Below are positions 13,101 through 25,989 of a stretch of DNA of 32,051 nucleotides, in pieces. The stretch spans positions 1-32,051 of IMG/VR virus record IMGVR_UViG_3300046535_000238; one strand, 5' to 3'. The DNA comes from a virus. The first letter of the stretch is position 1; every line of letters begins with the position of its first letter. The translations under genes and the position numbers were made by a program. The notes beneath the pieces were generated by a model. The model saw only the letters and a program-made list of their open reading frames with translations, ran no database searches and was not told where the DNA came from.

Positions 13101-14107
13101 TGCCGAACCGTGCCGGGCCTCCGCCCGTCCAGAACGCCGCACCGCAGGGGCAGAAGGATCGCCTCGCCCTTGTCGTGTCGGAGCTGGGCAACCGGGAGGC
13201 TCAGTTCAACGATCTGCTGGGGAAGGAGCACCGGGCGCGCTGGATCACGGTGGCTCTGCACGCTCTGGCGCAGAACGACTACGTCCTCCGCAGCTGCACG
13301 CCGATGTCGATCGTGGAGGCCATCCGCGAGTCGGCTGCGCTGAACCTCCAGCCGACCGGTCTGCTGGGCGAGGGCTGGATCATCCCGTACGGCGACAAGG
13401 CCACGTTCCAGCCCGGATATCGCGGCTACCTGAAGCTCCTGCGGAACAGCGGGCAGATCAAGACGGTTGACTCCCAGCTGGTCTACATGAACGACGACTT
13501 CGCGCTGTCGCTGGGCACCGATCCGAGCATCCATCACGTCCCCGTCCTCTACGGAGAGAAGGGCGACGACGGCACCTACCTCAGCGACCGGGGCGAGTAC
13601 CGGGGCGTCTACGCCTACGTCCGCATGAACAGCGGCGAGACGGTGATCGAGTGGATGTCGTGGGACGACGTCATGGTCGTGCGGAGCAAGTCGCCATCGG
13701 TGCAGCGGGGCAAGCAATCCCCGTGGGACGACTTCGCCGGGGAGATGGCGCGCAAGACGGTCCTCCGACGGTTGATGAAGCGTCTGCCGCTGGACTCGAT
13801 GCCGCAGGTCGCGCACGCCGCGACACTCGACGAAGAGGCCGACGTCATCGAGGGTCAGGCCACCGAAGTGACGGCTGCCGCACCGGGCCGCGCTACCGCT
13901 GCCGCATACGCTCTGGCACGCGGGCAGGCGGACGAGGAGAGCGACCAACAGAGGACGCCAGAGAAGCCCACAGAGGCCATCGTGACCACTGCAGAGCTGC
14001 CTTCCCAGATGTGTGCCGCGCCTAGCCCGTACGGTGACGGCGATGTGTGCGTGCTGGCGCATGGTCACCCGAACAATCACCGCTCCGACGGCGGATCGTG
14101 GAGCTAG
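13100..14107 (+). CDS. recT: RecT-type single-strand annealing protein
   Basis: A 335-residue protein. The ATG at 13100 is 7 bases from AAGGAGG; a GTG 3 bases earlier is possible. The RecT core spans about residues 15-245 and has the family features SIVEAIRESAALNLQPTG, PGYRGYLKLLRNSGQI, EWMSWDDVM and a late ARKTVLRRLMKRLP helix. It pairs complementary single strands made by the adjacent YqaJ exonuclease. Residues 303-335 are an unusual tail (MCAAPSPYGDGDVCVLAHGH, PNNHRSDGG) with a Cys/His motif that recurs in two other proteins of this window. Confidence 0.9.
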   Translation: MPNRAGPPPVQNAAPQGQKDRLALVVSELGNREAQFNDLLGKEHRARWITVALHALAQNDYVLRSCTPMSIVEAIRESAALNLQPTGLLGEGWIIPYGDKATFQPGYRGYLKLLRNSGQIKTVDSQLVYMNDDFALSLGTDPSIHHVPVLYGEKGDDGTYLSDRGEYRGVYAYVRMNSGETVIEWMSWDDVMVVRSKSPSVQRGKQSPWDDFAGEMARKTVLRRLMKRLPLDSMPQVAHAATLDEEADVIEGQATEVTAAAPGRATAAAYALARGQADEESDQQRTPEKPTEAIVTTAELPSQMCAAPSPYGDGDVCVLAHGHPNNHRSDGGSWS

Positions 14108-14445
14108 TCTCCGCAGCGCGTGACGGCTGGACGAAACTCCGGTGGACCGTCTTCCGCAGGGACGGCGGCTGCGCAGCTGTTCAGCCGCGCTACTTCCGGG
14201 ACGACGTCGCCACCGATCAGTGCCGGGGGAAGCACGGCTGGCTCATCCGCTGGGACGACGTGTTCCAGATGGAGTGGGACCACGTCAGAGACGATCGGGG
14301 CCGTCGTGTCGATGACGAGGCGCACGGCATCACCGTCTGCCCGTGGCACCATCGCGGGTCCAGCTGGCGCATCGACACGAAGGAGCGCCGGGCGCGCATC
14401 CGGGACGTCTTGCGGGCGCTGTACCCGGACGCGTGGGCGCAGTAG
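14098..14445 (+). CDS. HNH-type endonuclease
   Basis: A 115-residue protein starting at GTG 14098, overlapping the recT end by 10 bases; longer readings lie inside recT. FRRDGGC (Cys25), Cys42, WDHVRDD with Asp61-His62, and CPWHH (Cys81, His84, His85) follow the order of the HNH/zinc-stabilised beta-beta-alpha nuclease. It could be a recombination or packaging nuclease, or a homing-type nuclease; with recT beside it, the first is favoured. There is no clear ribosome site, so translation is probably coupled. Confidence 0.75.
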   Translation: MELVSAARDGWTKLRWTVFRRDGGCAAVQPRYFRDDVATDQCRGKHGWLIRWDDVFQMEWDHVRDDRGRRVDDEAHGITVCPWHHRGSSWRIDTKERRARIRDVLRALYPDAWAQ

Positions 14446-14517
14446 AGTGGTCGTGCCGGTGTGACAGTCGGCGCGTCAGCGGGTGCGGAGCCGGGGTGCT
14501 ACGACCACTCCGGCTCC
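14445..14517 (+). promoter_or_regulatory. Interlocking inverted repeats in leader of replication gene
   Basis: GAGTGGTCGT (14445-14454) is perfectly complementary to ACGACCACTC (14501-14510), and GGAGCCGG (14487-14494) to CCGGCTCC (14510-14517). The two pairings interlock, so they can form either alternative hairpins or a pseudoknot. TAGAGT at 14443-14448 might be a -10 box. The gene starts at 14551 after GAAGGGGAA. Confidence 0.5.
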
Positions 14518-14550
14518 CCCGCAACCTTGTCGTAGAAGGGGAACCGTTTC

Positions 14551-15501
14551 ATGGCGTGGGTCAAGATTGATGACCACTTCAACGAGCACCCTAAGCTGTC
14601 GAAGGTCGGACCGGTCGGGGTCGCTTTCTGGGCCGCTGGGCTGGCCTACTGCAACCGCAACCTGACGGACGGCTTCATCCCGTGGGGCGTCGCTCCGTCG
14701 TTGTATCACATGGAGTTCCAGGACGAGAGCGGGACGGCGTGGCAGATCTGCATCGCGCCGGTCGACGCCGATCGAGGTTCTGACGGCGAAGTGGATGCGT
14801 GGGCGCTGGGGTCCCTAAAGGTCATCGGGATGCTGGTCGCGGCAGGCATCTTCGAACAGGTTCCGGGCGGCTACCAGATCCATGATTACGCCGACTATCA
14901 GCCCACGAAGGCGCAGGTCCTCGAGGAACGAGCACAGAAGGCGGCAGCTGGTAGAGCGGGTGGTAGAGCAACCGCCAGAGCACGCGCCGGAGCACCCGCT
15001 ACAGCAGATCAGGTAGCAGAACGACAGCCCGTACCCGTACCCCTCTCTACCAACAGTGAGGACTCAACTTCTCCTACCGTAGAAGACTCTTCGTCACACG
15101 AAGGTAGAGTGCGCGATGACTGGATCGATCTGTCGAACCTGATGAACGATCTCACCGGCAAGCTCTACGCCATCCCGAACCCGTGGTCGAAGATGGCGGA
15201 GAAGGCATTCGACCTCATCGACCGGCACGGCTGGCAGGCGTTCGAGGAACGCGCCCGGCTGGTCGCTGGCCGCGTCGGTAAGAACCCCGGCGTGGATGAG
15301 ATCATCTTCGGGGTCGGGAACTCGATGCGGCGCGGTGTGGACACCGCCGACGTGGCGAAGCAGGAGCGTGCCGCTGAAGCCGCAAGCGTCACGAGGAGCC
15401 GGGTCGAGAAGACTCAGCTCCAGCTGCACGGCTACGGTCAGCACGGCGACGGTCCGGAGAATCACCCGGCGTGTCCCAGCTGCGCTGAAGTCCCGGTCTA
15501 G
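14551..15501 (+). CDS. Replication initiator / replisome organiser-like protein
   Basis: A 316-residue protein. The start (MAWVKIDDHFNEHPKL...AAGLAYCNRNLTDGFIP) is typical of a phage replication-protein family whose N-terminus is winged-helix-like, with a typical VIGMLVAAGIF...GYQIHDYADYQPTK segment. Residues 133-187 are a low-complexity Ala/Arg/Ser/Pro linker. The C-terminal domain (WIDLSNLMNDLTGKLY, WQAFEERARLVAG) is helical and could load a helicase; the last part has CPSC. The layout matches lambda O-like initiators, with an origin-like repeat cluster in the linker DNA. The exact family could not be confirmed. Confidence 0.7.
   Translation: MAWVKIDDHFNEHPKLSKVGPVGVAFWAAGLAYCNRNLTDGFIPWGVAPSLYHMEFQDESGTAWQICIAPVDADRGSDGEVDAWALGSLKVIGMLVAAGIFEQVPGGYQIHDYADYQPTKAQVLEERAQKAAAGRAGGRATARARAGAPATADQVAERQPVPVPLSTNSEDSTSPTVEDSSSHEGRVRDDWIDLSNLMNDLTGKLYAIPNPWSKMAEKAFDLIDRHGWQAFEERARLVAGRVGKNPGVDEIIFGVGNSMRRGVDTADVAKQERAAEAASVTRSRVEKTQLQLHGYGQHGDGPENHPACPSCAEVPV
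14950..15109 (+). repeat. GGTAGAG iteron-like cluster (candidate replication origin)
   Basis: GGTAGAG occurs at 14950-14956, 14962-14968 and 15103-15109, and inverted as CTCTACC at 15045-15051. Near-copies are at 15012-15018 (GGTAGCA) and 15073-15078 (CCTACC). The segment is richer in A/T and uses codons such as AGA, GTA, ACA and TCT that are rare elsewhere in the window. The placement inside the linker of an initiator-like gene recalls the lambda O/ori arrangement. Confidence 0.5.
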
Positions 15502-15513
15502 GTTGCACCGGGC

Positions 15514-15680
15514 TGCTATGTTGATGGTCGGCTATTCAACGCTCGTGCCGCAGCTACGCCGAAGTGGGACCGGATACCGGACAGGCGCTGCGGGTTTGGG
15601 ATGCCTCCTGTACCCCGAGCACGACGGAACCCCGCAAGGGGTCGCCCGGTCCCAGCCTACTCACTCGGATAGGAGGCAGA
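15514..15680 (+). promoter_or_regulatory. Structured leader with ribosome-site-sequestering pairing, before modification cassette
   Basis: An extended -10-like TGCTATGTT lies at 15514-15522 without a good -35. Downstream, TGCCTCCT (15602-15609) is exactly complementary to the ribosome site AGGAGGCA (15671-15678). GGGACCGG (15566-15573) pairs with CCGGTCCC (15646-15653); ACCCC-GCAA-GGGGT (15629-15642) is a hairpin with a GNRA tetraloop. CCTGT (15607-15611) could instead pair with ACAGG (15581-15585), freeing the ribosome site. This looks like a cis-acting RNA switch or attenuator. Confidence 0.5.
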
Positions 15681-15684
15681 ACCC

Positions 15685-16419
15685 GTGACTCTTGAACAGA
15701 TGCCGCTGCTCCCCGAGGACGAGATCATCGTCCGGCCGCAGGGCAAGCCGCCGATCGCGGCTCCCGACATCCAGAAGCTCCCGCTCCTCGATGTCTACGA
15801 GATCAGGCATCACCCCCGGAACGTCCGGCGGCACAACCTCCCCGCCATCGTCGAGTCGCTGCGGAAGTACGGTCAGCAGTCGCCCATCGTCGTGCAGAAG
15901 TCGACGGGCTTCATCTGCAAGGGCAACGGAACCGTGAAGGCCGCACGGGACATCCTCGGATGGACCCACATCTACGGCAGCGTCGAGGACTTCGACGACG
16001 ACACGGCGCTCCGGTATCTGCTCGCCGACAATCGCTCGTCCGACACGTCCGAGAACGACAAGGCCGCTCTGGGCGCGCTCCTGAAGGAACTGGACGCCGG
16101 GGCCGGTGGGCTGCAAGGCACGCTCTTCGATCTCGACGCCGCTGAGGACGTCTGGGCCGAGATGGGGCAGATCACGACGGTGGTCGCACAGACGGATGCC
16201 GCGTACGCCGAGACGGAGGAGCAGCTGGCCGCTCGCATCGAGGCGAAGCACAGCGACACGGCGGGCACGCTGAAGGAAGTCGTGCTGGTCCTGAACGCCG
16301 CCGACTACGAGCAGTTCGCCCTCACCGTCTCGAAGCTGGCCCGAGCCTACGGGACTCAGGGCGTTCGGGCCACCGTGATGGAGGCCATCCGCCGGGCTGG
16401 CGAGCAGGTCGTGGCGTGA
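15685..16419 (+). CDS. ParB-like N-terminal-domain protein
   Basis: A 244-residue protein with a GTG start 6 bases after AGGAGGCA. Residues 34-120 form a ParB/Srx-type domain: LDVYEIRHHPRNVRRHN, ESLRKYGQQSPIVVQ, CKGNGTVKAARDILG and ALRYLLADNRSSD. The usual GHxR motif is replaced by KGNGTVKA. The rest is helical, without the ParB HTH, so chromosome-type partition is unlikely. In phages such stand-alone ParB domains often accompany DNA methyltransferases and base-modification genes and may bind nucleotides or DNA. Here it heads the TET/JBP cassette and overlaps the next gene. Confidence 0.82.
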   Translation: MTLEQMPLLPEDEIIVRPQGKPPIAAPDIQKLPLLDVYEIRHHPRNVRRHNLPAIVESLRKYGQQSPIVVQKSTGFICKGNGTVKAARDILGWTHIYGSVEDFDDDTALRYLLADNRSSDTSENDKAALGALLKELDAGAGGLQGTLFDLDAAEDVWAEMGQITTVVAQTDAAYAETEEQLAARIEAKHSDTAGTLKEVVLVLNAADYEQFALTVSKLARAYGTQGVRATVMEAIRRAGEQVVA

Positions 16420-17168
16420 GCGGCGCGATGATCCAGCCGTTCATCTCCATCATCAGCGCGGGCAGGCCGCAGAACGTTCCCGCGATGGACGCGCTGGTGG
16501 ATCTACCGCACGTCTGGATCGTCCCTCAGGGGCAGGCGGAGGACTATCGGTACGCAGGTGCCGACAAGGTGATGGAGACGCCCTCTACGCAGGACACGCA
16601 TCAGCGGAACTTCGCGCTGGACGTGGCCGGAAGCCGGTGGTGCGTCCAACTGGACGACGACCTCCAGAAGCTCCGGTACTGCGTCCCCGGCGAGAAGGGC
16701 CAGCCGATCACCGTCAGCCTCGCCATCGGCATGATGGTGGCGGCTGCCGAAGACCTCGGGGCGTTCTACGCGGGCATCGCCCCGACGGACAACGCCTACT
16801 TCACCCGGACCGCGTTCAACACGACGGGCTTCATCCGGTCGGCGTTCACGGTCTACCGGCCCGGCTCCCAGCTGCGCTACGACCATCAGTTCCCGCTGAA
16901 GGGCGACTACGATCTGACGTGCCAGCATCTCGCGAAGTACGGTCGGGTCGCTCGGGTCGATGGTCTGCTCGGCTCCTTCAAGTTCGGGCAGGGTTCCGGC
17001 GGGTGCGTGGCCTACCGGACGCCCGTCCTCGAAGAGATGGTCATCGGTAAGCTGATGGCGAAGTGGCCGGGCATCATCACGCCGAACACGAAGCGGCCCG
17101 GCGAGGTTCTGCTCCGCTGGAAGGTGCCCGACGAGGTCGCGGTCGCGCAGATGGGCTTCGACGCATGA
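16416..17168 (+). CDS. TET-associated glycosyltransferase-like protein 1
   Basis: A 250-residue protein; GTG overlapping the previous stop (an ATG 12 bases on is an alternative). It has a GT-A-like start (FISIISAGRPQNVPAM), VWIVPQGQAEDY, QRNFALD and a metal-binding DDD at residues 80-82 in WCVQLDDDLQKL. The middle part has ADNAYFTR-like and LRYDHQFPLKGDYDLT segments consistent with the TAGT family. These enzymes are known or predicted to attach sugars to hydroxymethylated bases made by TET/JBP dioxygenases, which fits the dioxygenase gene two genes downstream. The donor sugar and acceptor base are not shown. Confidence 0.72.
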   Translation: MSGAMIQPFISIISAGRPQNVPAMDALVDLPHVWIVPQGQAEDYRYAGADKVMETPSTQDTHQRNFALDVAGSRWCVQLDDDLQKLRYCVPGEKGQPITVSLAIGMMVAAAEDLGAFYAGIAPTDNAYFTRTAFNTTGFIRSAFTVYRPGSQLRYDHQFPLKGDYDLTCQHLAKYGRVARVDGLLGSFKFGQGSGGCVAYRTPVLEEMVIGKLMAKWPGIITPNTKRPGEVLLRWKVPDEVAVAQMGFDA

Positions 17169-17926
17169 TCGGCGTGCCGAGCAAGGGCCGCGCAGGCAGA
17201 TCCCAGACTCTGGCAGCTGTTCTCGGGCAGGGCATCGACGTGCCCGGCCACGAGGTCTGGATCGTCTGCCCGGCGATCGAGATCAACGCCTACCGCGACG
17301 CCTACCCGTGGGTCACGTACATCTGGCCTCAGGACGGACCCGGCATCGGTTCTGCTCGGCAGACATTGCTCCGTCACGCTCGCGAGATCGGCACCGGCCC
17401 GTTCTGGATGCTCGACGACGACATCACCAGCACGTCGGTGAAGCTGGTCGGCGGGCCGATGGGCAAGGTGGCTCTCCCTCACTTCCTTTCGATGCTCGAC
17501 TCCGTTCTGGTGCCGTACCTGAACGAGAAGATCGCGCTGGCCGGGCCGAACTTCCGGCACCGGGCGTGGACCGATCCGTACGGCGTCCACATGGACGTTC
17601 ATCTGCGGAACTTCATCCGCGTCAACCCGGCTGCGCCGATCGACTACTGGCCGCACCTGAAAGAGGATCTCGACGTCGTCTTGCAGGCGCTGATGGCGGG
17701 CTGGCACACCGTCCTGTTCAATCAGTTCGTCTTCGACTCGCCGCAGATGGGGACCAGCGCGGGCGGTTGCCGCGACGACTACGACGCCGGTCTGCTCGAT
17801 GAGGCGTGCCGGGCGCTGGTCGAGAAGTGGCCGGGTGTCGTATCCTTGCGCATCACCGAAGAGGCGCAGCTGACCAATCGCGTCGACTGGCGCGAGGTCA
17901 GGCGGCGACAGGAGGCAATCGCATGA
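17165..17926 (+). CDS. TET-associated glycosyltransferase-like protein 2
   Basis: A 253-residue protein with ATG overlapping the previous stop. IGVPSKGRAGRSQTL starts the GT-A fold, followed by VWIVCPAIE and a DDD metal-binding motif at residues 84-86 in FWMLDDDI; later LKEDLDVVLQALMAGW is typical of the acceptor half. It is homologous in layout to the preceding protein but diverged, so the two may add successive sugars or act on different acceptors. It overlaps the dioxygenase gene as ATGA and holds that gene's ribosome site, ACAGGAGGCA (17908-17917). Assignment rests on fold motifs and context. Confidence 0.74.
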   Translation: MIGVPSKGRAGRSQTLAAVLGQGIDVPGHEVWIVCPAIEINAYRDAYPWVTYIWPQDGPGIGSARQTLLRHAREIGTGPFWMLDDDITSTSVKLVGGPMGKVALPHFLSMLDSVLVPYLNEKIALAGPNFRHRAWTDPYGVHMDVHLRNFIRVNPAAPIDYWPHLKEDLDVVLQALMAGWHTVLFNQFVFDSPQMGTSAGGCRDDYDAGLLDEACRALVEKWPGVVSLRITEEAQLTNRVDWREVRRRQEAIA

Positions 17927-18975
17927 CGATGACGGAGATCCGGCTCCGCAGTCGCACCGATCCGGCGGTGCTGGAGTCGCAGAAGGGCAAGATCCTCACC
18001 GACAACGACTTCGACCTCCTCGTCAAGGGACCGACTCGGGTGCTGAAGCCCGACGGCAAGCCGCTCGCGATCTACCTCCCCGGCGCGCTGGACGACGCTC
18101 TGCTCGACGCCAGCTACGGCACGCTCCACTCGCTGAAGGCGATGGAGACGGACAATCGCGGGCTGGCCTCCGGCACGAAGCGGGTGAAGTACTCGGAAAC
18201 GACAACCCGCAGCCGGTCGAAGAACGTCCCATCGACCATCATCGGCGCGTTCGACGCCAATCCCCGGTTCCAATACTGCCGCCTGACGGCATGGTCCGGG
18301 AAGGAGTGGGACAAGTGGTCGGCGCTGTTCCCGCTCTTCGAACGGATCGGGGAGCGCTTCGCCGAAGAGGTCCCAGACAGGTACGCGGTTCAGCAGCGCA
18401 TGGTCGAGCAGACGCATGAGGACTGGCGCATCGGCAAGACGCCGTTCACAACGATCACGGTGAACAACACCTACCCGACCGGCGTCCACACCGACGCGGG
18501 CGACCTCCAGGAAGGGTTCAGCACGCTGGCCGTCCTGCGCCGGGGGAACTACCGGGGCGGCAACCTCGTGTTCCCGGAGTTCCGGGTCGCGGTGGACATG
18601 CAGCACGGCGACCTTCTGCTGATGGACGCTCACGAGTGGCACGGCAACGTCGCGCTCACCGACCTGACGCCGGAATGCGAGTGGTGCCGTCTACGGGCCA
18701 CGCAGACGATCTCAGCGACCCGGCCTGACACGGGCAAGGTGGTCAGCCGGGCCATCTGCGCCGATCACCTCAAGACGCTCAAGGAACAGGGCAACGTCTC
18801 CTTCGAGAAGGTCGAGCCGATCATCCCGATGGAGCGGATCAGCGTCGTCAGTTACTATCGGACGAACATGAAGGAGTGCGGCAGCGCGGAGGAGGAGGCC
18901 GCGCGCGCCGCCATCAACGCGGCGAACCGCACCGGCATCGTGGATGAGATGGCACAGGAGGCAACCGGAGCATGA
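17923..18975 (+). CDS. TET/JBP-type 2-oxoglutarate/Fe(II) dioxygenase with zinc-ribbon-like insertion
   Basis: A 350-residue protein (ATG 17923; a second ATG two codons later). The catalytic set is present: HTD with His189 and Asp191 in PTGVHTDAGD, a distal His (probably His240) in MDAHEWHGN, and Arg313 in ISVVSYYRTNM to bind 2-oxoglutarate. GNYRGGNLVFPEF between them is typical of phage TET/JBP proteins. It should hydroxylate the methyl group of thymine or 5-methylcytosine in DNA, preparing it for the two upstream glycosyltransferases. Residues 252-282 carry Cys252, Cys255, Cys279 and His282, a CxxC...CxxH ribbon inserted between the distal His and the Arg. No base methyltransferase is in the window, so the substrate base is open. 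Confidence 0.85.
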   Translation: MTMTEIRLRSRTDPAVLESQKGKILTDNDFDLLVKGPTRVLKPDGKPLAIYLPGALDDALLDASYGTLHSLKAMETDNRGLASGTKRVKYSETTTRSRSKNVPSTIIGAFDANPRFQYCRLTAWSGKEWDKWSALFPLFERIGERFAEEVPDRYAVQQRMVEQTHEDWRIGKTPFTTITVNNTYPTGVHTDAGDLQEGFSTLAVLRRGNYRGGNLVFPEFRVAVDMQHGDLLLMDAHEWHGNVALTDLTPECEWCRLRATQTISATRPDTGKVVSRAICADHLKTLKEQGNVSFEKVEPIIPMERISVVSYYRTNMKECGSAEEEAARAAINAANRTGIVDEMAQEATGA

Positions 18976-19460
18976 GCGCAGCTGCGACAGTTCCCGACCC
19001 GACCGACGTCTGCGCGTACGGTCACCAGCTGGCACCGGGCAGCGAGGAGATGGTCCTCAAGGAGTACGACGCCGAAGGTCGCAAGATCGGGGAGAAGGTC
19101 GTCCTTCTTCGCAATCACGCCTGCATCGGGCCGAAGGGCATCTACGCCGGGACGCCCGTCCCGGTCCTCGATGACTCGGGCAAGACGGTGCGCGTCCAGA
19201 TCGACGGCTACGACCCTCAGGACCACGGACTGTCTCCAACGGTCGTCACCCGGCTAGTGCCGTACCCGTGCGGACACGCGCTTCCCGAGGCAGAGGTGGA
19301 CCCCACAGAGCTTCCTCCGGTCCCTCTGCGTGGCAAGAGCTATGGCCGGGCGCACTGGCTCGCCGACGGCGGCTGGCAGCGCATCAACGAGAAGATCCAG
19401 ATCGCCATCGTCCAGTGCCCGGTGTGCCGGGGCGAACCGGCTCCCGACTGGCGTTCCTGA
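18972..19460 (+). CDS. Hypothetical Cys-rich protein at end of modification cassette
   Basis: A 162-residue protein; ATG overlapping the dioxygenase stop, with ACAGGAGGCA (18954-18963) 8 bases upstream. It is beta-rich (MVLKEYDAEGRKIGEKVVLL, VRVQIDGYDP) with scattered Cys near the start, YPCGHALP, and a late CPVCRG pair, compatible with a metal site. No family was recognised. As the last gene coupled to the TET/JBP cassette it may take part in base modification or be an unrelated passenger. Confidence 0.68.
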   Translation: MSAAATVPDPTDVCAYGHQLAPGSEEMVLKEYDAEGRKIGEKVVLLRNHACIGPKGIYAGTPVPVLDDSGKTVRVQIDGYDPQDHGLSPTVVTRLVPYPCGHALPEAEVDPTELPPVPLRGKSYGRAHWLADGGWQRINEKIQIAIVQCPVCRGEPAPDWRS

Positions 19461-19464
19461 ACGG

Positions 19465-19505
19465 TAACTAGGGGCTTTACAAACCCCGTGAACTCCTGCT
19501 ACGGT
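19465..19505 (+). promoter_or_regulatory. Early promoter copy 5
   Basis: TAACTAGGGGC, then TTTACA (19476-19481), an 18-base spacer and TACGGT (19500-19505), preceded by TGC (extended -10). GGTAC-TCC-CGTAC (19503-19515) overlaps the -10 end. It ends the modification operon region and starts the next small-gene run. Confidence 0.72.
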
Positions 19506-19548
19506 ACTCCCGTACCCCGCTGGGGGTCAGGGAACAGGAGGCATCAAG

Positions 19549-19824
19549 ATGGCTGCAACGGGAACCGATCGGCGCAACGCCGCACGCAAGGCGACTGGCT
19601 CAGTCTTCGGGGTCACCACCGCGAAGGCACACCGCACGATCAAGGTCGCGGTCTACGTTCAGGTCGAGATCGACGTCACCGAACTCGAGAACGAGTACGG
19701 TCGCAGCTTCACCGCCACCGAAGCCCGGCAGGACGTGAAGGACAGCATCTTCGGGGCCGTCGCCACGGCCATGTACCCGTCCCACTCGATCGACAAGATC
19801 GTCAAGTCGGCGAAGGCCAGCTGA
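19549..19824 (+). CDS. 91-residue hypothetical protein
   Basis: The ATG is 5 bases after ACAGGAGGCA (19534-19543). A basic, Ala-rich start (TDRRNAARKATG) is followed by a beta strand pair (KVAVYVQVEIDV) and a helical part (ATEARQDVKDSIFGAVATA). It contains no cysteine. First gene of the promoter-5 operon. No function recognised. Confidence 0.7.
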   Translation: MAATGTDRRNAARKATGSVFGVTTAKAHRTIKVAVYVQVEIDVTELENEYGRSFTATEARQDVKDSIFGAVATAMYPSHSIDKIVKSAKAS

Positions 19825-20021
19825 TGGAGACGAAGGTCGTCTATCGCCAGCATTCGCACAGCCGGGTCCAGAAGGTCACACCGATGATCACGTGCCCGAC
19901 GGACCGCTGGCCGAACATCTACGGCAGCGTCGTGCCTGTCATTCTGGAATGCGGCTATGTCGTCGCGGGCAACCCGGCCACGTCGTGGAAGGTGGGCGAG
20001 CTGGTCAGGTGCGGTCACTGA
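19824..20021 (+). CDS. 65-residue hypothetical protein with Cys
   Basis: The ATG overlaps the previous stop as TGATG. The product METKVVYRQHSHSRVQKVTP continues with MITCPTDRWPNIYGSVVP, LECGYVV and a final VRCGH. Three Cys and several His may bind a metal. The longer frame upstream is a shadow of the previous gene and promoter. Not recognised. Confidence 0.62.
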   Translation: METKVVYRQHSHSRVQKVTPMITCPTDRWPNIYGSVVPVILECGYVVAGNPATSWKVGELVRCGH

Positions 20022-20242
20022 TGGAGAGGGCAGGCGACATTCTGAAGCGGGTCTGCCCCTGCGGGGGCGACCCGTCCGGGCCGATGCACGAGGAGTCGCT
20101 GCTCCACCGCAGCTGGCTCCTCGGCGAAGGCCTCAGGAATCACGATCCGCTGGAGCAGCCCGATCGCCGCCATCTCCGCGAGCGCATCGGCCCGGTCGAT
20201 GACACGCACCATCTTCGGCGGACCGGCAATGAGCTCCGGTAG
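20021..20242 (+). CDS. 73-residue Cys/His hypothetical protein
   Basis: The ATG overlaps the previous stop as TGATG. It starts MERAGDILKRVCPCGGDPSG and then has MHEESLLHRSWLLG and an Arg/His/Asp-rich end. The opposite strand is also open here with a plausible-looking protein, so the call relies on overlap coupling and direction of the neighbours. Function unknown. Confidence 0.5.
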   Translation: MERAGDILKRVCPCGGDPSGPMHEESLLHRSWLLGEGLRNHDPLEQPDRRHLRERIGPVDDTHHLRRTGNELR

Positions 20243-20245
20243 CCG

Positions 20246-20272
20246 GTTGCCGGGCGACAGGTACGCTGGTAC
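20246..20272 (+). promoter_or_regulatory. Possible promoter/operator with GGTAC repeat
   Basis: GGTACGCTGGTAC (20260-20272) is the same 8-base-period direct repeat found at promoter copies 1 and 2. TACGCT (20261-20266) could be a -10 box, with TTGCCG (20247-20252) upstream, but the spacing of 8 bases is too short for a normal -35, so only the repeat is convincing. Confidence 0.4.
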
Positions 20273-20282
20273 TGTGCCCGGC

Positions 20283-20432
20283 ATGGACAGGAGGCAGCCG
20301 TGCTACGGCACGGGGACCAGTCAGCGCATCGACTCCCGCCGACCCGGGGAACCGATCAGGACGTGCGGCATCATGACCGACAATCCGACCGGCCTCTGCA
20401 ACTTCTGTCGCAAGACGGAGGGCAAGCGGTGA
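20283..20432 (+). CDS. 49-residue four-Cys protein, start uncertain
   Basis: In this frame the G/C third-position pattern is strong and the product ends PTGLCNFCRKTEGKR with earlier CYGTG and RTCGIM, giving a Cys4 site. The only in-frame upstream start is ATG 20283, which lies before the ribosome-site motif ACAGGAGGCA (20287-20296); the GTG that the motif serves best (20300) is in a different frame. ATG 20373 would give only 19 residues. The gene may use an almost leaderless ATG, or a base may have been lost or gained. It overlaps the next gene as GTGA. Confidence 0.45.
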   Translation: MDRRQPCYGTGTSQRIDSRRPGEPIRTCGIMTDNPTGLCNFCRKTEGKR

Positions 20433-20752
20433 CACAGAAGGCGACGGTGCTGCGGCTCCTCGAAGCACGGGGCTTCAAGGGCGTCTCGGCTCACGAACTC
20501 ATCTACCAGCACGGCATCACCCGTGGCGCAGCTGTAATCCACAATCTGCGCGAGGAAGGCTTCGATATCGAGACGTCGGGCGGCGAAGGGGAGCTGGCGA
20601 CGTACACCCTCACGAGGGCGATCAAGCCGCCGCCTCCGCCGTGCTCCTGCGGTCATCGCAAGTCCGGGCACGCCTCCGGCTACCGTTGCATGGCTGAGGC
20701 CGAGTCGGACACCGGCAACGGCTACTGTCAGTGTGAGCGCTATGCCGTCTAG
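20429..20752 (+). CDS. Winged-helix protein with C-terminal zinc motif
   Basis: A 107-residue protein starting at GTG 20429, overlapping the previous stop. Residues 1-62 (KATVLRLLEARGFKGVSAHE, HGITRGAAVIHNLREEGFDI) form a clear winged helix-turn-helix as in many phage regulators. After a PPPPP hinge comes a metal-binding tail, CSCGHRKSGH...RCM...CQCERY. It probably binds DNA and regulates transcription. A longer reading of the frame from 20300 exists, but its codon use there is poor. Confidence 0.75.
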   Translation: MTQKATVLRLLEARGFKGVSAHELIYQHGITRGAAVIHNLREEGFDIETSGGEGELATYTLTRAIKPPPPPCSCGHRKSGHASGYRCMAEAESDTGNGYCQCERYAV

Positions 20753-21044
20753 CGTCGAGACGATCGAGTTCTACGCCGTCATGGGCAGCGAGCCTGATCA
20801 GCCGCAGAAGTGCCACGAGATCTTCCTCCAGCGCGACCGCGCAGACTCGTTCATCTTCAACGGTCTGTTGCAGGCCGTCGCCATGCACCGCGACGTCGCT
20901 CTGGAAGAGGGTGACGTGCTGTCGATGATCATGCAGCGCGGCAGCGAGGACGTCATGACCACCGGCAGTCTGGTCGTCAACAGCGCCAGCGATCGCCACG
21001 TCTGGGACTTCAGGGTCGAGAAGCGATGGGCACCGAAGCCGTGA
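20733..21044 (+). CDS. 103-residue hypothetical protein
   Basis: Starts at GTG 20733 or ATG 20742, overlapping the winged-helix gene by 11-20 bases. The product is a mixed alpha/beta protein (VETIEFYAVMGSEP, DRADSFIFNGLLQAVAMHRD, MTTGSLVVNSASDRHVWDF). No motif recognised. Overlaps the nuclease gene that follows, suggesting co-expression. Confidence 0.65.
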   Translation: MSAMPSSVETIEFYAVMGSEPDQPQKCHEIFLQRDRADSFIFNGLLQAVAMHRDVALEEGDVLSMIMQRGSEDVMTTGSLVVNSASDRHVWDFRVEKRWAPKP

Positions 21045-21376
21045 TCGGCAAGGTGTCGATGGGTCCGACACCTGAGCCGGACTGGGACGAGCCTCACTTC
21101 CAGCGATGGCTGGTCGCGACGGCCCGGGCGAACGGTTGGCGAGTGCGCATCATGGATCAGCGCGGTCGGCCCGGCTGGCGCGGCCAGTCCACCGACAAGG
21201 GACTGCCGGACCTCCTGCTCGTCAAGGATCGGGTGGTCTGGCTGGAGCTGAAGGCGAAGGGCGGGAAGCTGCGGCCCGATCAGGTCGAATGGCTCGCGGC
21301 ACTGAAGGCGGCTGGCGCAGAGGTCCATGTCGTCGATCCGAGCGAATGGGAGTACATCATGAGCGCAATCCTGTGA
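21026..21376 (+). CDS. VRR-NUC-type endonuclease
   Basis: A 116-residue protein with the VRR-NUC pattern: PHFQRWLVATARANGW, GLPDLLLV with Asp62, WLELKAKGG with Glu74 and Lys76, LRPDQVEWL with Gln86, and AGAEVHVV. This small PD-(D/E)XK fold is widespread in phages and cuts structured DNA, possibly in replication or Holliday-junction processing. It overlaps both neighbours. Length is normal for the stand-alone form. Confidence 0.87.
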   Translation: MGTEAVIGKVSMGPTPEPDWDEPHFQRWLVATARANGWRVRIMDQRGRPGWRGQSTDKGLPDLLLVKDRVVWLELKAKGGKLRPDQVEWLAALKAAGAEVHVVDPSEWEYIMSAIL

Positions 21377-21951
21377 CGCAGCTGCACCGGGTCGATGGCA
21401 AGACCGTCTCCTTCTGGGACAAGGAGCCGCCGCAACCCGACTGGCGCAGCGGCCTCGGCCTTCTCGTCGCGGCGTTCATCGCCGGACTGGTCTTCGGCTT
21501 CATCTTCGGCGCGGGCCAACCTTCCCGGCAGGCTCCGGCCACGACCCCTCAGCCGTCCTCGGCTGGAGCACAGCGATCCTCGGTGCCTGCACCGTCGCCC
21601 ACCGCTGCCGGTCAGGTCGGCGTGACGGATACGTCCCCGGAGCCTACCGGGGCGGTTGGCTCGGTCGCCGAAGGACGTCACGGCATCATTGCCTACGCAA
21701 CGATCGGCGGGCCGGGCTACCTCGCCATCCCGATCGGGCCGGGCCATCTGGTCAAGATCTGCGGCCCGGCAGCGTGCTGGACCACCGTCAGCACCGACGC
21801 CGGTCCCAATCACGAGCGTCTGCTGGCAGGCCGCATCGCAGACGTGGCCGTGGGGCAATGGGAGCGCATCTGCGGGCGCTCACGGACGCGTGGGACGTGC
21901 GTGGGGACATGGCAGACGGTGGACGTGCCGCTACCGGCGACCGACCGATGA
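21373..21951 (+). CDS. Membrane-anchored protein with extracellular, double-psi-barrel-like domain
   Basis: A 192-residue protein from GTG 21373, overlapping the nuclease stop. A cytoplasmic start is followed by one membrane helix (residues 27-48, GLGLLVAAFIAGLVFGFIFG), a Pro/Ser/Thr-rich stalk (50-98) and a folded outer domain with Cys130, Cys135, Cys167 and Cys176 as likely disulfides. TVSTDAGPNHERLLAGRIAD followed by VAVGQWERIC resembles the last part of RlpA-like double-psi beta-barrels. It would sit outside the membrane of the infected cell. Wall remodelling or superinfection exclusion are possible roles; neither is shown. Confidence 0.65.
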   Translation: MTQLHRVDGKTVSFWDKEPPQPDWRSGLGLLVAAFIAGLVFGFIFGAGQPSRQAPATTPQPSSAGAQRSSVPAPSPTAAGQVGVTDTSPEPTGAVGSVAEGRHGIIAYATIGGPGYLAIPIGPGHLVKICGPAACWTTVSTDAGPNHERLLAGRIADVAVGQWERICGRSRTRGTCVGTWQTVDVPLPATDR

Positions 21952-21990
21952 CCCGGCCGTCCACCCCGGACGCCAGCGAAGGAGAGCCGA

Positions 21991-22086
21991 ATGCGTGACG
22001 AGATCATCTGGGGGCTGACGGTCGGCATCTACATCGGCCTGATCGCGGCCCTCCTGCTCCTGAGCAGCGGACGAGTGATCCGATGA
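21991..22086 (+). CDS. 31-residue single-pass membrane microprotein
   Basis: GAAGGAGAG lies 4 bases before the ATG. The product MRDEIIWGLTVGIYIGLIAA continues with LLLLSSGRVIR: one membrane helix with an acidic N-terminus and basic C-terminus. It overlaps the next gene as ATGA. Similar in size to the one at 11965. Function unknown. Confidence 0.58.
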   Translation: MRDEIIWGLTVGIYIGLIAALLLLSSGRVIR

Positions 22087-22502
22087 CCCACCCCGAGCCG
22101 ACCCCCGAGAGCGTGGAGCGGCGCCAGTTCACCGAGTACGAGTTGTCCGCCCTCCTCAACGAAGCGTGGACGCCTGACGACGTGTTCGTGGACGACGGCG
22201 AGGTGTGGGACATGCTCGCCGCCCGAGTATTCGCGGCGTCGCCTCTCGCCGCCACCCCGCAGACCGACCGAGGGGACGGAGTCACGACACAATGCCCGCA
22301 GATCGGCGTCCACGATCACCCGTTCCGTGGGCCGCACACGTTCACCGAGTCGTATGCCGACGCCATCGCGAGCCCTTCCGAGGAGCCGGGGCGACCGCCA
22401 CTCGATCCCGTCGTGAAGGCTCACGACGACGCCTACATGGCGGGCCTGATCCGTGGCCGCGAGGTCGAACGTGAAGCCGTTCGTCACGGAGATCGATCGT
22501 GA
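22083..22502 (+). CDS. 139-residue hypothetical protein
   Basis: The ATG overlaps the microprotein stop. The first half is acidic and helical (YELSALLNEAWTPDDVFVDD); a central TQCPQIGVHDHPFRGPH could hold a metal; the end is a helix with AYMAGLIRGREVEREAVRHG. The last bases carry one copy of a 24-base repeat shared with the next gene. Not recognised. Confidence 0.65.
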   Translation: MTHPEPTPESVERRQFTEYELSALLNEAWTPDDVFVDDGEVWDMLAARVFAASPLAATPQTDRGDGVTTQCPQIGVHDHPFRGPHTFTESYADAIASPSEEPGRPPLDPVVKAHDDAYMAGLIRGREVEREAVRHGDRS

Positions 22503-22557
22503 CCACTCGCAAGCAGGCGAAGGAGTTCGTCGAGAAGGCGTTCGTCACGGAGATCGA
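22473..22557 (+). repeat. 24-base direct repeat spanning a gene junction
   Basis: GAAGCCGTTCGTCACGGAG plus ATCGA (22473-22496) recurs with a single mismatch at 22534-22557, 61 bases downstream. The two copies are read in different frames by the two adjacent genes, so the identity is at the DNA level. Confidence 0.75.
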
Positions 22558-22702
22558 GGCGAAGTCCGCGCTCATCGTCATCCACCGGGTCGTGCGCAGC
22601 ATGGACGACCCGAACCCCGTCACGCAAAGGAAGGCGATGGACCAGCTGTTGAAGTTCGCCGAAGGTCATCCACTCCCGGCTGGGCTGGAGCGGCTCCTGT
22701 GA
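22499..22702 (+). CDS. 67-residue helical hypothetical protein
   Basis: A GTG start overlapping the previous stop. It is helical throughout (RKQAKEFVEKAFVTEIEAKS, VTQRKAMDQLLKFAEG). It contains the second copy of the 24-base repeat as EKAFVTEIE. No family recognised; a small DNA-packaging or regulatory helper is possible, but unsupported. Confidence 0.62.
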   Translation: MTTRKQAKEFVEKAFVTEIEAKSALIVIHRVVRSMDDPNPVTQRKAMDQLLKFAEGHPLPAGLERLL

Positions 22703-22980
22703 AGCAGCATCAGTTCACGCCCGGCGTCGTTCAGGTCCGAGGCGACAGTCGCTTCAGCCGATGCACCGTCTGCAAGCGTCCGGGGAAGGAGATGACTCGC
22801 GTCCACAGCGGTCACACAACGCGCTTCTGGCAGCACCGCACCCGACCAGCTGTCGAACCCGGCACAGCGGACGTCTGCGACTGGCAGGGAACGGGAAGGC
22901 TCTGGTGCTGCAAGACAGCCGGGCACGACGCCGGGCATCATGCCCATCGCGGACCGCGCAGGGTCGTCCATGCCGGGTGA
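22699..22980 (+). CDS. 93-residue zinc-binding-type protein with GHxxxHH tail
   Basis: A GTG start overlapping the previous stop. It contains CTVCKRPGKEM, HSGHTTRFWQH and DVCDW, and ends with CCKTAGHDAGHHAHRG, a Cys/His motif also present in the recT tail and at the start of the LuxR-type protein at 25990. Two metal sites are likely. It overlaps the first LuxR-type HTH gene, so the two may work together. Confidence 0.66.
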   Translation: MKQHQFTPGVVQVRGDSRFSRCTVCKRPGKEMTRVHSGHTTRFWQHRTRPAVEPGTADVCDWQGTGRLWCCKTAGHDAGHHAHRGPRRVVHAG

Positions 22981-23170
22981 GCTGACACCCCACGAGCGGC
23001 GCGTCCTCGAAGCCTCGCTGACCGGCGAGAACGACGTAGCGATCGCGGCGCAGCTGGGCATGGCCGTCCAGACCGTCAAGAACGCCCGCTGGCGAGCCTA
23101 CTGGAAGCTCGGCGTTCACGGTCGTCAGGCCCGCTGGCACGCGGCCCGCATTCTGGGGATCCGCTCATGA
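22970..23170 (+). CDS. LuxR/GerE-type HTH protein 1
   Basis: A 66-residue protein that is almost only a GerE helix-turn-helix: LTPHERRVLEASLTGENDVA, IAAQLGMAVQTVKNARWRAY, KLGVHGRQ. It lacks any sensor domain. It probably binds DNA as a dimer and regulates phage or host genes. The ATG lies inside the end of the preceding gene (11-base overlap). A second protein of the same type occurs at 25990. Confidence 0.78.
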   Translation: MPGELTPHERRVLEASLTGENDVAIAAQLGMAVQTVKNARWRAYWKLGVHGRQARWHAARILGIRS

Positions 23171-23316
23171 TCTGCTTCGGCACTCGGGGCGCACGGCGCA
23201 TCGGCCTCCATCACTTCCAGCGCATCGGTCGCGCCACCGTCTACGGTCGCGACCTCCTTCACATCGCGGTCTGCGCCTACTGCGACGGGGCGCGCATCGA
23301 CAAGGGACGGGCATGA
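23167..23316 (+). CDS. 49-residue hypothetical protein with CxxC
   Basis: The ATG overlaps the previous stop as ATGA. The product MICFGTRGARRIGLHHFQRI continues with GRDLLHIAVCAYCDGARIDK; the CAYC pair with Cys3 and nearby His may bind zinc. The overlap with the small terminase gene as ATGA supports a real gene. Function unknown. Confidence 0.6.
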   Translation: MICFGTRGARRIGLHHFQRIGRATVYGRDLLHIAVCAYCDGARIDKGRA

Positions 23317-23993
23317 CCCTCGTTCGTCCCACCGGGCAGAAGTGCGGGGTCGTCTACAAGGGACGTCCTCCGTGCAGGCAGTACGCCGGGTGGGGCACCG
23401 AACACCCCGGCTTCGGGCCGTGCAAGAATCACGGCGGCAGCACTCCCAGCGTCAGCCCGAAGTACGAATCCGCCATGATGGTCGCGATCGCCATGAAGGA
23501 TGTGGCTCGTCTCGGCGGCGCACCGAACGCTGACCCCGAGCAGGCGCTTCTCGACCTCGTCAGTCAGGCGGCAGGGCTGGTCAGCTGGTACGGAACGGAA
23601 GTAGAACGGCTGGCCGAACTCGAAGGCGTGGCCCTCTGGCGCAGCCCGAACGACATCGGCTACGAGCACGGCGACTCGCTGTTCGGGCCGGAGATCGACG
23701 TTGACAAGGACGGAACCGAGCACGTCGTCGGGGAGAAGCTTCGGGGCATGGTCGTGCTCTGGAACGAGGAACGCGACCGGCTGGCGAAGTACGCGAAGCT
23801 GGCGCTCGCCGCTGGCATCGAGAAGCGACGGGTCGAGATGGCCGAGCAACAGGGTGAGCAGATGGTGATCGTGATCCAGAACGTGCTGGTCCAGCTGGGG
23901 ATGTCGCCAGAGGACTTGTCGAAGGCGCGTACGCTGGCCGCATCCGAGCTACGAAGGCTCGGTTCTGGAACGGACAAGGGAACGGACAAGTGA
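23313..23993 (+). CDS. Small terminase subunit (actinophage type)
   Basis: A 226-residue protein. The N-terminus has the Cys/His pattern of actinophage small terminases: Cys11, Cys21, Cys37 and His40 in CGVVYKGRPPCRQYAGWG, HPGFGPCKNHGG. The rest is helical (DLVSQAAGLVSWYGTEVERL, RDRLAKYAKLALAAGIEKRR), consistent with oligomerisation, ending with SELRRLGSG. It would recognise the packaging site and recruit the large subunit encoded 2.3 kb downstream. The separation from TerL by seven genes is unusual. Assignment by pattern; fairly sure. Confidence 0.78.
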   Translation: MTLVRPTGQKCGVVYKGRPPCRQYAGWGTEHPGFGPCKNHGGSTPSVSPKYESAMMVAIAMKDVARLGGAPNADPEQALLDLVSQAAGLVSWYGTEVERLAELEGVALWRSPNDIGYEHGDSLFGPEIDVDKDGTEHVVGEKLRGMVVLWNEERDRLAKYAKLALAAGIEKRRVEMAEQQGEQMVIVIQNVLVQLGMSPEDLSKARTLAASELRRLGSGTDKGTDK

Positions 23994-24118
23994 TGGACCT
24001 CGAAACCTTCCGCGCCGTCATCGGCGCAGGCATCGGCGTGGCGACGATCATCGCCATCATCGCGACGCTGGTATTCGCCTTCTGCGTCTGGACCGACGTC
24101 AACTCGACGCTTCGGTGA
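23993..24118 (+). CDS. 41-residue single-pass membrane microprotein
   Basis: The ATG overlaps the small terminase stop as TGATG. The product MDLETFRAVIGAGIGVATII continues with AIIATLVFAFCVWTD: one membrane helix. It is the last of five similar microproteins in the window. Function unknown. Confidence 0.58.
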   Translation: MDLETFRAVIGAGIGVATIIAIIATLVFAFCVWTDVNSTLR

Positions 24119-24285
24119 GCAAACGGGGCCGGGGCCGCGAACGACCACCGGACATCTTCGCTCAGGCGATGGCGTCGCTGACCTCGCCGTTCCAGATGTG
24201 CCCGACGTGCATGGGCCGGGGATGGATACTCGCGCAGCTGGGACGGTTCGGATGCTGGGTCTGCCGAGGCCGTGGTGTTCGGTGA
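24115..24285 (+). CDS. 56-residue DnaJ-like zinc-finger protein
   Basis: A GTG start overlapping the previous stop. The basic N-terminus (SKRGRGRERPP) is followed by CPTCMGRGW and CWVCRGRGV, two CxxCxGxG units as in the DnaJ central zinc domain, here alone. The two units would bind one zinc ion. It might bind unfolded protein or nucleic acid; no J domain is present. Too short for most gene finders, but the motif pair is convincing. Confidence 0.65.
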   Translation: MSKRGRGRERPPDIFAQAMASLTSPFQMCPTCMGRGWILAQLGRFGCWVCRGRGVR

Positions 24286-24493
24286 GGCGAAGCCGAAGGA
24301 CAAGCCGCACGTCCCTCTCGAGTCGAAGGACCTCTGGCCCGGACGAGTCGTCCTCTACATGGGCAAGCCGGTGAAGGTGGTAGCAGTCAGCATGTCAGTC
24401 GCCCCATCAGGCGCACAGATCGTTCTAGCCGTCGTGAGGCGTCCGCAGGGCGACGAGCAGACGGTGTTCGCCGGGCAGCTGGCAGAACAGTGA
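24272..24493 (+). CDS. 73-residue beta-rich hypothetical protein
   Basis: Starts at GTG 24272 or the GTG directly after it, within the end of the zinc-finger gene. After a Lys/Pro start it contains a small barrel-like pattern (WPGRVVLYMGKPVKVVAVSM, QIVLAVVRRPQGDEQTVFAG), similar to SH3-like or KOW-like folds. Function unknown. Confidence 0.62.
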   Translation: MVFGEAKPKDKPHVPLESKDLWPGRVVLYMGKPVKVVAVSMSVAPSGAQIVLAVVRRPQGDEQTVFAGQLAEQ

Positions 24494-24777
24494 TCTGCTC
24501 GTGCGGCAAGGACGTCCGAGTTCTACATCCCGCGTGCGAGCGAGCGCAGGGCCGCGAGCGCAGGGCCGCGCAGGGCCGCGCGCGTGAGGAGAACGGGCCA
24601 GAGAAGCTCTGCGTCGTCTGCCAGAAGAAGGTCGGCGCGTGGCACGCCAACGGCGTCCATCCCAGCTGCGAGCCGAAGATGAAAGAACTCTGGAAGGAAC
24701 GCGGCATCGGCGCATCGCTCACGCAGGCGCAGCGGGATGCCATACTGCGCGGCATCAACGTCGGGAGGCGCTCATGA
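24490..24777 (+). CDS. 95-residue zinc-ribbon-like protein with internal tandem repeat
   Basis: A GTG start overlapping the previous stop. It contains CSCGKD, CERAQG, CVVCQKKVGAWHANGVHPSC and then a helix (LTQAQRDAILRGINVGRRS). Three copies of the 10-base unit CAGGGCCGCG at 24547-24580 encode its Arg/Ala/Gln/Gly linker. Two metal sites are likely. Function unknown. Confidence 0.66.
   Translation: MICSCGKDVRVLHPACERAQGRERRAAQGRAREENGPEKLCVVCQKKVGAWHANGVHPSCEPKMKELWKERGIGASLTQAQRDAILRGINVGRRS
24547..24580 (+). repeat. Three-copy CAGGGCCGCG tandem repeat
   Basis: Perfect copies at 24547-24556, 24561-24570 and 24571-24580. The last two are directly adjacent; the first is separated by 4 bases (14-base period). 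It lies in a linker, where length changes would be tolerated only in multiples of three. Confidence 0.8.
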
Positions 24778-24950
24778 TCTGGATCAAGATCCGCAGCTGG
24801 CACCGTCAGGACGGCGACGTCGATGCGAACGGTCGGGTCAAGACGGTGTGCGGTCGATGGGTCGCACCGGGCGCGCCGGTCGCAGCTGACATCCCTCATG
24901 CCGAGAAGTCCTGCGAGTCCTGCCTCCGCCTCATCGTCAATGGCGACTGA
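24774..24950 (+). CDS. 58-residue three-Cys hypothetical protein
   Basis: The ATG overlaps the previous stop as ATGA. The product MIWIKIRSWHRQDGDVDANG continues with VKTVCGRWV and HAEKSCESCLRLI, a pattern common in small actinophage proteins (C...CxxC) that probably binds zinc with the His. It overlaps the next gene as TGATG. Function unknown. Confidence 0.68.
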   Translation: MIWIKIRSWHRQDGDVDANGRVKTVCGRWVAPGAPVAADIPHAEKSCESCLRLIVNGD

Positions 24951-25987: not shown

Positions 25988-25989
25988 TC

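What the first reader, a model, noticed from the sequence alone, without database searches (positions are those of the whole stretch)
15685..18975. Compact DNA hypermodification cassette: ParB-like, two TAGT-like glycosyltransferases, TET/JBP dioxygenase
Four genes overlap tightly in one operon. The dioxygenase has the full HxD...H...R set, and both sugar enzymes show a DDD metal site. TET/JBP enzymes oxidise thymine or 5-methylcytosine methyl groups, and TAGT proteins are their known sugar-adding partners in phages. Two different TAGTs suggest a disaccharide or two products. No methyltransferase or hydroxymethylase is in the window, so the base is undecided.
Basis: partly seen in the sequence, partly recalled or inferred. 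Interest (0 to 1): 0.82.

Follow-up and report, generated by a model that had tools for sequence, protein, structure and literature searches.

The report
Phage TET–glycosyltransferase DNA-modification cassette
A phage, probably of actinobacteria, carries a four-gene block that most likely oxidises the methyl group of a pyrimidine in its own DNA, probably thymine, and then hangs one or two sugars on it as armour against bacterial defences; the kind of system is known, but the pairing of two different sugar enzymes and the likely thymine target are of real interest.

Summary
At 15685-18975 (+) four genes overlap by 4 bp each: ParB-like, TAGT, a second TAGT, and a TET/JBP dioxygenase. A fifth unknown gene (18972-19460) is coupled downstream. 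The dioxygenase has H189/D191/H240/R305; its model matches human TET2 at Z 20.9, against about 14 for AlkB-type folds. The TAGTs have a GT-A fold and DDD, and belong to two separate subfamilies.

In 87 TETs of this clade, ParB and TET form the core, and the block beside them swaps between TAGT and an amine module (P-loop kinase, amino acid:DNA transferase); 80 loci have one of these, only one has both. The transferase family also occurs in phages M6, ViI and phiW-14, which carry 5hmdU-derived thymidines; all three encode a thymidylate-synthase-type hydroxymethylase, but 0 of 50 TET-clade records do. C5-methyltransferases occur in 4 of 50, at least 9.7 kb away. One cultured host with a ParB-TAGT-TET prophage has none in its draft genome. 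Thymine, giving a base-J-like sugar-5hmU, is the better guess (about 65%); one relative with a C5-methyltransferase nearby keeps cytosine open. The kind is known; the tandem TAGT pair is a variant.

The parts
15685..16419 (+). ParB-like (ParB/Srx-fold N-terminal domain) protein, first gene of the cassette
   Evidence: PHROG ParB-like 1.3e-27; Pfam ParB_N 0.005, below cut-off; same gene near the TET in 62 of 87 clade loci
16416..17168 (+). TAGT1, GT-A glycosyltransferase of the subfamily found in the Haloechinothrix alba prophage (L101)
   Evidence: Pfam TAGT 3.4e-5, just below cut-off; invariant DD and D164; model pLDDT 86 matches GT-A enzymes such as TarP and GnT-I; clade support 98
17165..17926 (+). 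TAGT2, second glycosyltransferase, of the subfamily found in Nonlabens phage P12024L
   Evidence: Pfam TAGT 1.5e-18; 22% identical to TAGT1; clade with P12024L-type and L027 TAGTs, support 96
17923..18975 (+). TET/JBP-family Fe(II)/2-oxoglutarate dioxygenase, 350 aa
   Evidence: Pfam Tet_JBP 9.6e-19; H189/D191/H240/R305 invariant; model pLDDT 88; Z 20.9 to TET2, 17.7 to NgTET1, about 14 to AlkB-type folds
18972..19460 (+). unknown 162-aa Cys-rich protein, translationally coupled to the TET; membership uncertain
   Evidence: ATGA overlap and ribosome-binding site; no Pfam or PHROG match; no homologue in the first 26 relatives

Best explanation
A post-replicative DNA hypermodification operon of a phage. 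The TET/JBP dioxygenase oxidises the 5-methyl group of a pyrimidine in phage DNA to hydroxymethyl, and one or both TAGTs transfer sugar to that hydroxyl. The base is most likely thymine, so that the product is a glycosylated 5-hydroxymethyluracil, chemically like kinetoplastid base J, possibly carrying a disaccharide because there are two TAGTs. The ParB-like protein probably binds or guides the enzymes on DNA. The purpose is presumably protection from host nucleases. Shown here: gene identities, motifs, folds, conserved gene order, module swapping and the co-occurrence pattern. Inferred: the base, the sugar(s), the order of the two TAGTs, the role of ParB and the purpose.
For: Family, motif and fold evidence for TET and TAGT. 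ParB-TAGT-TET or ParB-amine module-TET order recurs in divergent phages. TAGT and kinase/ADDT alternate beside the TET: 26 sugar, 53 amine, 1 both, 7 neither; 15-17 label changes on the TET tree, at least 9-11 forced by well-supported branches. So one hydroxymethyl base appears to serve both modules. ADDT (PF18724) is found in M6, ViI and phiW-14, whose modified thymidines derive from 5hmdU (PMC6449724). Those three all have a PF00303 enzyme, but 0 of 50 TET-clade records do. PF00145 C5-methyltransferase: 4 of 50, each at least 9.7 kb from the TET. The Haloechinothrix alba draft genome with a ParB-TAGT-TET prophage has no C5-methyltransferase by profile or by search with a relative's enzyme. 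Rhodococcus phage Tonitrus, with ParB, TET-like, aGPT-Pplase2 and kinase, was annotated as thymidine hypermodification (PMC11955845).
Against: Characterised phage TETs act on 5mC made by a phage C5-methyltransferase (Burke et al. 2021, own knowledge; the paper is not held, but is summarised in PMC12730594). Actinomadura locus L102, in the same TET clade, has a C5-methyltransferase about 3 kb upstream of the TET, and its TET has the same motif residues as the others. The window record is a fragment, so a methyltransferase could lie in the missing part, or host 5mC could be used. The clade's kinase family (PF18751) is not found in M6, ViI or phiW-14, so that link rests on ADDT alone.
Confidence: 0.62

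Rival explanations
1. The same cassette acts on 5-methylcytosine: a phage methyltransferase outside the sequenced fragment, or a host one, makes 5mC, the TET oxidises it to 5hmC, and the TAGTs glycosylate it, as in the cytosine systems known from viral metagenomes and in T-even phages.
For: Tested phage TETs use 5mC (Burke et al. 2021, own knowledge; summary in PMC12730594). T6-type TAGT adds a second glucose to glucosyl-hmC (PMC13216743; PMC13390438). L102 carries a C5-methyltransferase near its TET. The record is a fragment.
Against: 46 of 50 clade records, many of 40-109 kb, lack PF00145, and the four hits are 9.7-52 kb from the TET. The H. alba draft genome with ParB-TAGT-TET has none. The Inhavirus TET group and Cr30, DLP_6 and HTVC112P also lack it.
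Confidence: 0.27
2. Only one TAGT works on the hydroxymethyl base; the other acts on a different target, such as a protein or a host molecule, or is a decaying duplicate.
For: In the 137 other TET loci compared, no cassette has two TAGTs. TAGT2's nearest relative, L027, sits beside a kinase/ADDT module. TAGT1 scores below the Pfam cut-off.
Against: Both keep the DDD and the later aspartate, both lie in the operon with 4-bp overlaps, and each subfamily is the only TAGT beside a TET elsewhere. Microbacterium phage Zayuliv also has two adjacent TAGTs, with a thymidylate-synthase-family enzyme.
Confidence: 0.2
3. The TET removes or edits host 5mC marks (demethylation or counter-restriction), and the TAGTs are unrelated neighbours.
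For: TET enzymes in animals serve demethylation (general knowledge); the Actinomadura genome has a C5-methyltransferase.
Against: TAGT or kinase/ADDT adjoins the TET in 80 of 87 clade loci, which points to tailoring of the product.
Confidence: 0.05

Closest known systems
Phage C5-methyltransferase-TET-glycosyltransferase cytosine hypermodification clusters (Burke et al. 2021; cited in PMC12730594)
   Same: Phage TET with glycosyltransferases in one gene cluster; post-replicative oxidation then glycosylation
   Different: No C5-methyltransferase in this record and hardly any in its clade; target more likely thymine
Predicted TET/JBP-TAGT systems of Iyer et al. 2013 (own knowledge; PF20691 'TET-Associated Glycosyltransferase')
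   Same: Same enzyme families and the same general prediction
   Different: Here two TAGTs of distinct subfamilies in tandem; substrate argued from clade-wide co-occurrence
Rhodococcus phage Tonitrus thymidine-hypermodification cluster (PMC11955845)
   Same: ParB-like plus TET-like J-binding protein at the core
   Different: Tonitrus has aGPT-Pplase2 and a kinase (amine route); the window has the sugar route
M6, ViI and phiW-14 thymidine hypermodification (PMC6449724)
   Same: 5hmU-in-DNA as presumed intermediate; ADDT family shared with relatives of the window cassette
   Different: They make 5hmdU with a thymidylate-synthase-family enzyme; the window would make it from T in DNA with a TET, and glycosylates it
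Base J synthesis in kinetoplastids (JBP1/2 plus JGT)
   Same: Dioxygenase of the same family oxidising T in DNA, then a sugar on 5hmU (if the target here is T)
   Different: No J-binding domain found; JGT is not a TAGT (own knowledge); eukaryotic epigenetic mark, not phage armour
T2/T6 beta-glucosyl-HMC-alpha-glucosyltransferase (TAGT)
   Same: Same glycosyltransferase family, GT-A fold
   Different: Acts on glucosyl-hmC after a GT-B enzyme; no TET involved there (own knowledge)

Membership tests
TET/JBP dioxygenase (PF12851) | Profile match above the curated cut-off | tested here: met
   67.6 bits against 34.9
TET/JBP dioxygenase (PF12851) | HxD...H iron triad and 2-oxoglutarate-binding Arg | tested here: met
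   H189, D191, H240, R305 invariant in 23 sequences
TET/JBP dioxygenase (PF12851) | TET fold rather than AlkB or another dioxygenase | tested here: met
   Z 20.9 TET2, 18.5 CMD1, 17.7 NgTET1, about 14 or less for ALKBH3/AlkB/FTO
TET/JBP dioxygenase (PF12851) | Oxidises a 5-methylpyrimidine in DNA | not testable with these tools
   needs an enzyme assay
TAGT glycosyltransferase (PF20691) | Profile match above cut-off, TAGT2 | tested here: met
   67.9 bits against 27.5
TAGT glycosyltransferase (PF20691) | Profile match above cut-off, TAGT1 | tested here: inconclusive
   24.3 bits against 27.5, E 3.4e-5; the H. alba relative also falls below, so this divergent subfamily may be under-represented in the model
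TAGT glycosyltransferase (PF20691) | GT-A fold with DDD and downstream Asp | tested here: met
   TAGT1 model matches TarP, GnT-I, RmlT, K4CP; invariant D81, D82, D164 in 13 sequences including TAGT2
C5-MTase-TET-GT cytosine hypermodification | C5-cytosine methyltransferase in the cluster | tested here: not met
   None in the record; 4 of 50 clade records, all at least 9.7 kb from the TET; exception L102. The record is a fragment, so the whole phage is not excluded
M6/ViI-type thymidine hypermodification | Thymidylate-synthase-type dUMP hydroxymethylase | tested here: not met
   Absent from the record and 0 of 50 clade records; control phages positive
M6/ViI-type thymidine hypermodification | 5hmU kinase and amino acid:DNA transferase | tested here: not met
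   Neither PF18751 nor PF18724 in the window record, though common in relatives
Base J pathway | J-binding domain on the dioxygenase | tested here: not met
   Only the Tet_JBP domain matched above cut-off
Base J pathway | Sugar on 5-hydroxymethyluracil in DNA | not testable with these tools
   needs nucleoside mass spectrometry

The most novel reading that the evidence does not exclude
The TET oxidises thymine in duplex phage DNA directly (a bacterial-virus counterpart of JBP), and two TAGTs of separate subfamilies build a disaccharide on 5-hydroxymethyluracil: a phage 'base J' carrying two sugars, in a plug-in system where the same ParB-TET core accepts either a sugar module or an amine module.
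Probability: 0.35. Interest if true: 0.8.

Novelty: new variant of a known kind. Interest (0 to 1): 0.55.

Why it matters
If the target is thymine, phages have an alternative to dUMP hydroxymethylase for making 5hmU, and a prokaryotic counterpart to base J synthesis; this would support the idea that JBP-type chemistry came from phages. The clear swap between sugar and amine modules around a constant ParB-TET core makes the base question testable in cultured material, such as the Haloechinothrix alba prophage or Nonlabens phage P12024L. Such enzymes are also candidate tools for writing 5hmU or sugar-5hmU into DNA.

Tried and rejected
Nucleotide search of 14000-26000 against GenBank phages: no match. 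Sequence-profile search of the PDB with the TET alignment: no hit; the TAGT alignment gave only irrelevant hits, so fold comparison was used. I tried to use base-contact positions to tell T from C. The clade has D at HxD+3 and R at the 2OG-Arg+8 position, where TET2 has H (TET2 sequence confirmed), but L102 with a nearby C5-methyltransferase has the same residues, so this does not discriminate. I hoped the clade's kinase would be the family of the characterised 5hmdU kinases; it is not found in M6, ViI or phiW-14. A JBP sequence for direct comparison was not available. The key papers (Iyer 2013, Burke 2021, Lee 2022) are not held. In one search the motif search hit the wrong stretch in a few long open frames (for example L015, L047, L094), so the A1 alignment was used for conservation.

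Full report
What is there. The window is a complete 32,051-base IMG/VR virus record classed as linear, so probably a fragment of a phage genome. It has about 66% G+C, a tail-fibre region at the left, RecE/RecT recombination genes, a replication initiator, the cassette in question, then terminase, portal and a Mu-F-like protein at the right. The cassette is ParB-like (15685-16419), TAGT1 (16416-17168), TAGT2 (17165-17926) and TET (17923-18975), each overlapping the next by 4 bp. A further unknown gene at 18972-19460 overlaps the TET stop in the same way.

Identity of the enzymes. Pfam gives Tet_JBP at 9.6e-19, TAGT at 1.5e-18 for the second and 3.4e-5 for the first glycosyltransferase; PHROGs give ParB-like at 1.3e-27. 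The iron ligands H189, D191, H240 and the 2-oxoglutarate Arg R305 are invariant in 23 aligned sequences. An AlphaFold model (pLDDT 88) aligns with human TET2 at Z 20.9, CMD1 at 18.5 and NgTET1 at 17.7, well above ALKBH3, AlkB and FTO at about 14 and below. The TAGT1 model (pLDDT 86) matches GT-A enzymes such as TarP, GnT-I and RmlT, and two of the DDD aspartates and a later aspartate are invariant among 13 sequences including TAGT2.

Relatives. Two scans of viral contigs and one of bacterial genomes gave, with the window, 87 non-redundant members of the same TET clade. The two bacterial loci, in Haloechinothrix alba and Actinomadura rayongensis, lie beside phage genes. ParB lies near the TET in 62 of the 87 loci. 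Beside the TET lies either TAGT or a module of P-loop kinase (PF18751) with amino acid:DNA transferase (PF18724) and often a PLP enzyme or a weakly matched FAD-type oxidoreductase. These two are almost mutually exclusive: 26 sugar, 53 amine, 1 both, 7 neither (Fisher p about 1e-14; the loci are not independent). On the TET tree the labels need 15 to 17 changes, of which 9 to 11 are forced by well-supported branches. So the core stays while the tailoring module is exchanged.

Which base. The amino acid:DNA transferase family is also present in phages M6, ViI and phiW-14, whose modified thymidines derive from 5hmdU (PMC6449724). Those phages all carry a thymidylate-synthase-family enzyme, taken here as the hydroxymethylase; none of 50 TET-clade records does. 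C5-cytosine methyltransferase was found in 4 of 50, at distances that I computed from the reported coordinates as about 9.7, 41, 52 and 52 kb from the TET. H. alba, whose prophage has ParB-TAGT-TET, terminase and portal, has no C5-methyltransferase in its 4.7-Mb draft genome by profile or by search with the Actinomadura enzyme. The simplest reading is that the TET makes 5hmU from thymine in DNA, in place of the nucleotide-level hydroxymethylase. Against this, Actinomadura locus L102 has a C5-methyltransferase about 3 kb upstream of its TET, and the biochemically tested phage TETs use 5mC (own knowledge of Burke et al. 2021; summary in PMC12730594). I put thymine at about 65%.

Two sugars. TAGT1 and TAGT2 are 22% identical and fall in different supported clades: TAGT1 with the H. 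alba enzyme and its kin (98), TAGT2 with the P12024L type and L027 (96). Each subfamily is elsewhere the only TAGT beside a TET, so either could act on the hydroxymethyl base alone. In T6 a TAGT adds a second glucose (PMC13216743). No other TET locus among those collected has two TAGTs, while Microbacterium phage Zayuliv has two TAGTs beside a thymidylate-synthase-family gene. A disaccharide is plausible but not shown. PIG-L-type deacetylases near TAGT in L016 and L017 hint that some members of the clade transfer N-acetylated sugars.

Prior knowledge. TET-TAGT systems were predicted in 2013 (Iyer et al., own knowledge) and the TAGT family is named for them. Rhodococcus phage Tonitrus was described in 2025 as having a five-gene thymidine hypermodification system with ParB-like and TET-like J-binding proteins (PMC11955845). 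The present cassette is therefore a variant of a known kind. What is added is the tandem of two TAGT subfamilies, the exchange of sugar and amine modules around one core, and the co-occurrence argument for thymine.

Noticed in passing
window 2084-3028, 29208-29885, 29882-30820: Two further GT2-type glycosyltransferases and a possible third (very weak match), next to the tail-fibre genes and between portal and Mu-F-like gene; probably virion glycosylation, but not excluded as part of DNA modification.
   Followed up: no
window 18972-19460: Unknown Cys-rich 162-aa protein coupled to the TET by an ATGA overlap; no family match.
   Followed up: partly
window 18643-18838 (TET residues about 241-305): A 61-residue insert with CxxC...CxxH between the last iron ligand and the 2OG arginine; in 43 of 74 scored clade members (the window included) the insert has 3-5 cysteines, suggesting a small zinc-binding knuckle; 30 have none.
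   Followed up: partly
L127 (Mycobacterium phage Nigel) 776-1744 and 1786-2382: gp2, annotated 'queuine tRNA-ribosyltransferase', matches Tet_JBP (4.3e-6, below cut-off); gp3, annotated 'terminase small subunit', matches the PF18751 kinase at 2.9e-72; gp1 is ParB-like. A ParB-TET-kinase block in a phage of laboratory M. smegmatis. Cooper gp2 is already listed as TET/JBP in PMC12730594.
   Followed up: partly
L126 (Microbacterium phage Zayuliv) 4694-7841: Thymidylate-synthase-family gene followed by two adjacent TAGTs: a cultured phage likely to carry sugar-modified pyrimidines without a TET.
   Followed up: partly
L102 5069-10945: Actinomadura prophage block: radical SAM/SPASM protein, C5-methyltransferase, ParB, a possible GT-B glycosyltransferase (weak match), TET; the cytosine-type counter-example within the clade.
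   Followed up: partly
L016 11397-12200, L017 8233-8997: PIG-L-type deacetylases near the TAGT-TET pair (the L017 match is below cut-off), suggesting transfer and deacetylation of an N-acetyl sugar.
   Followed up: no
L103, L105, L106: TET proteins of HTVC112P, DLP_6 and Cr30 are annotated as 'SNF2 DNA repair protein' in GenBank.
   Followed up: no
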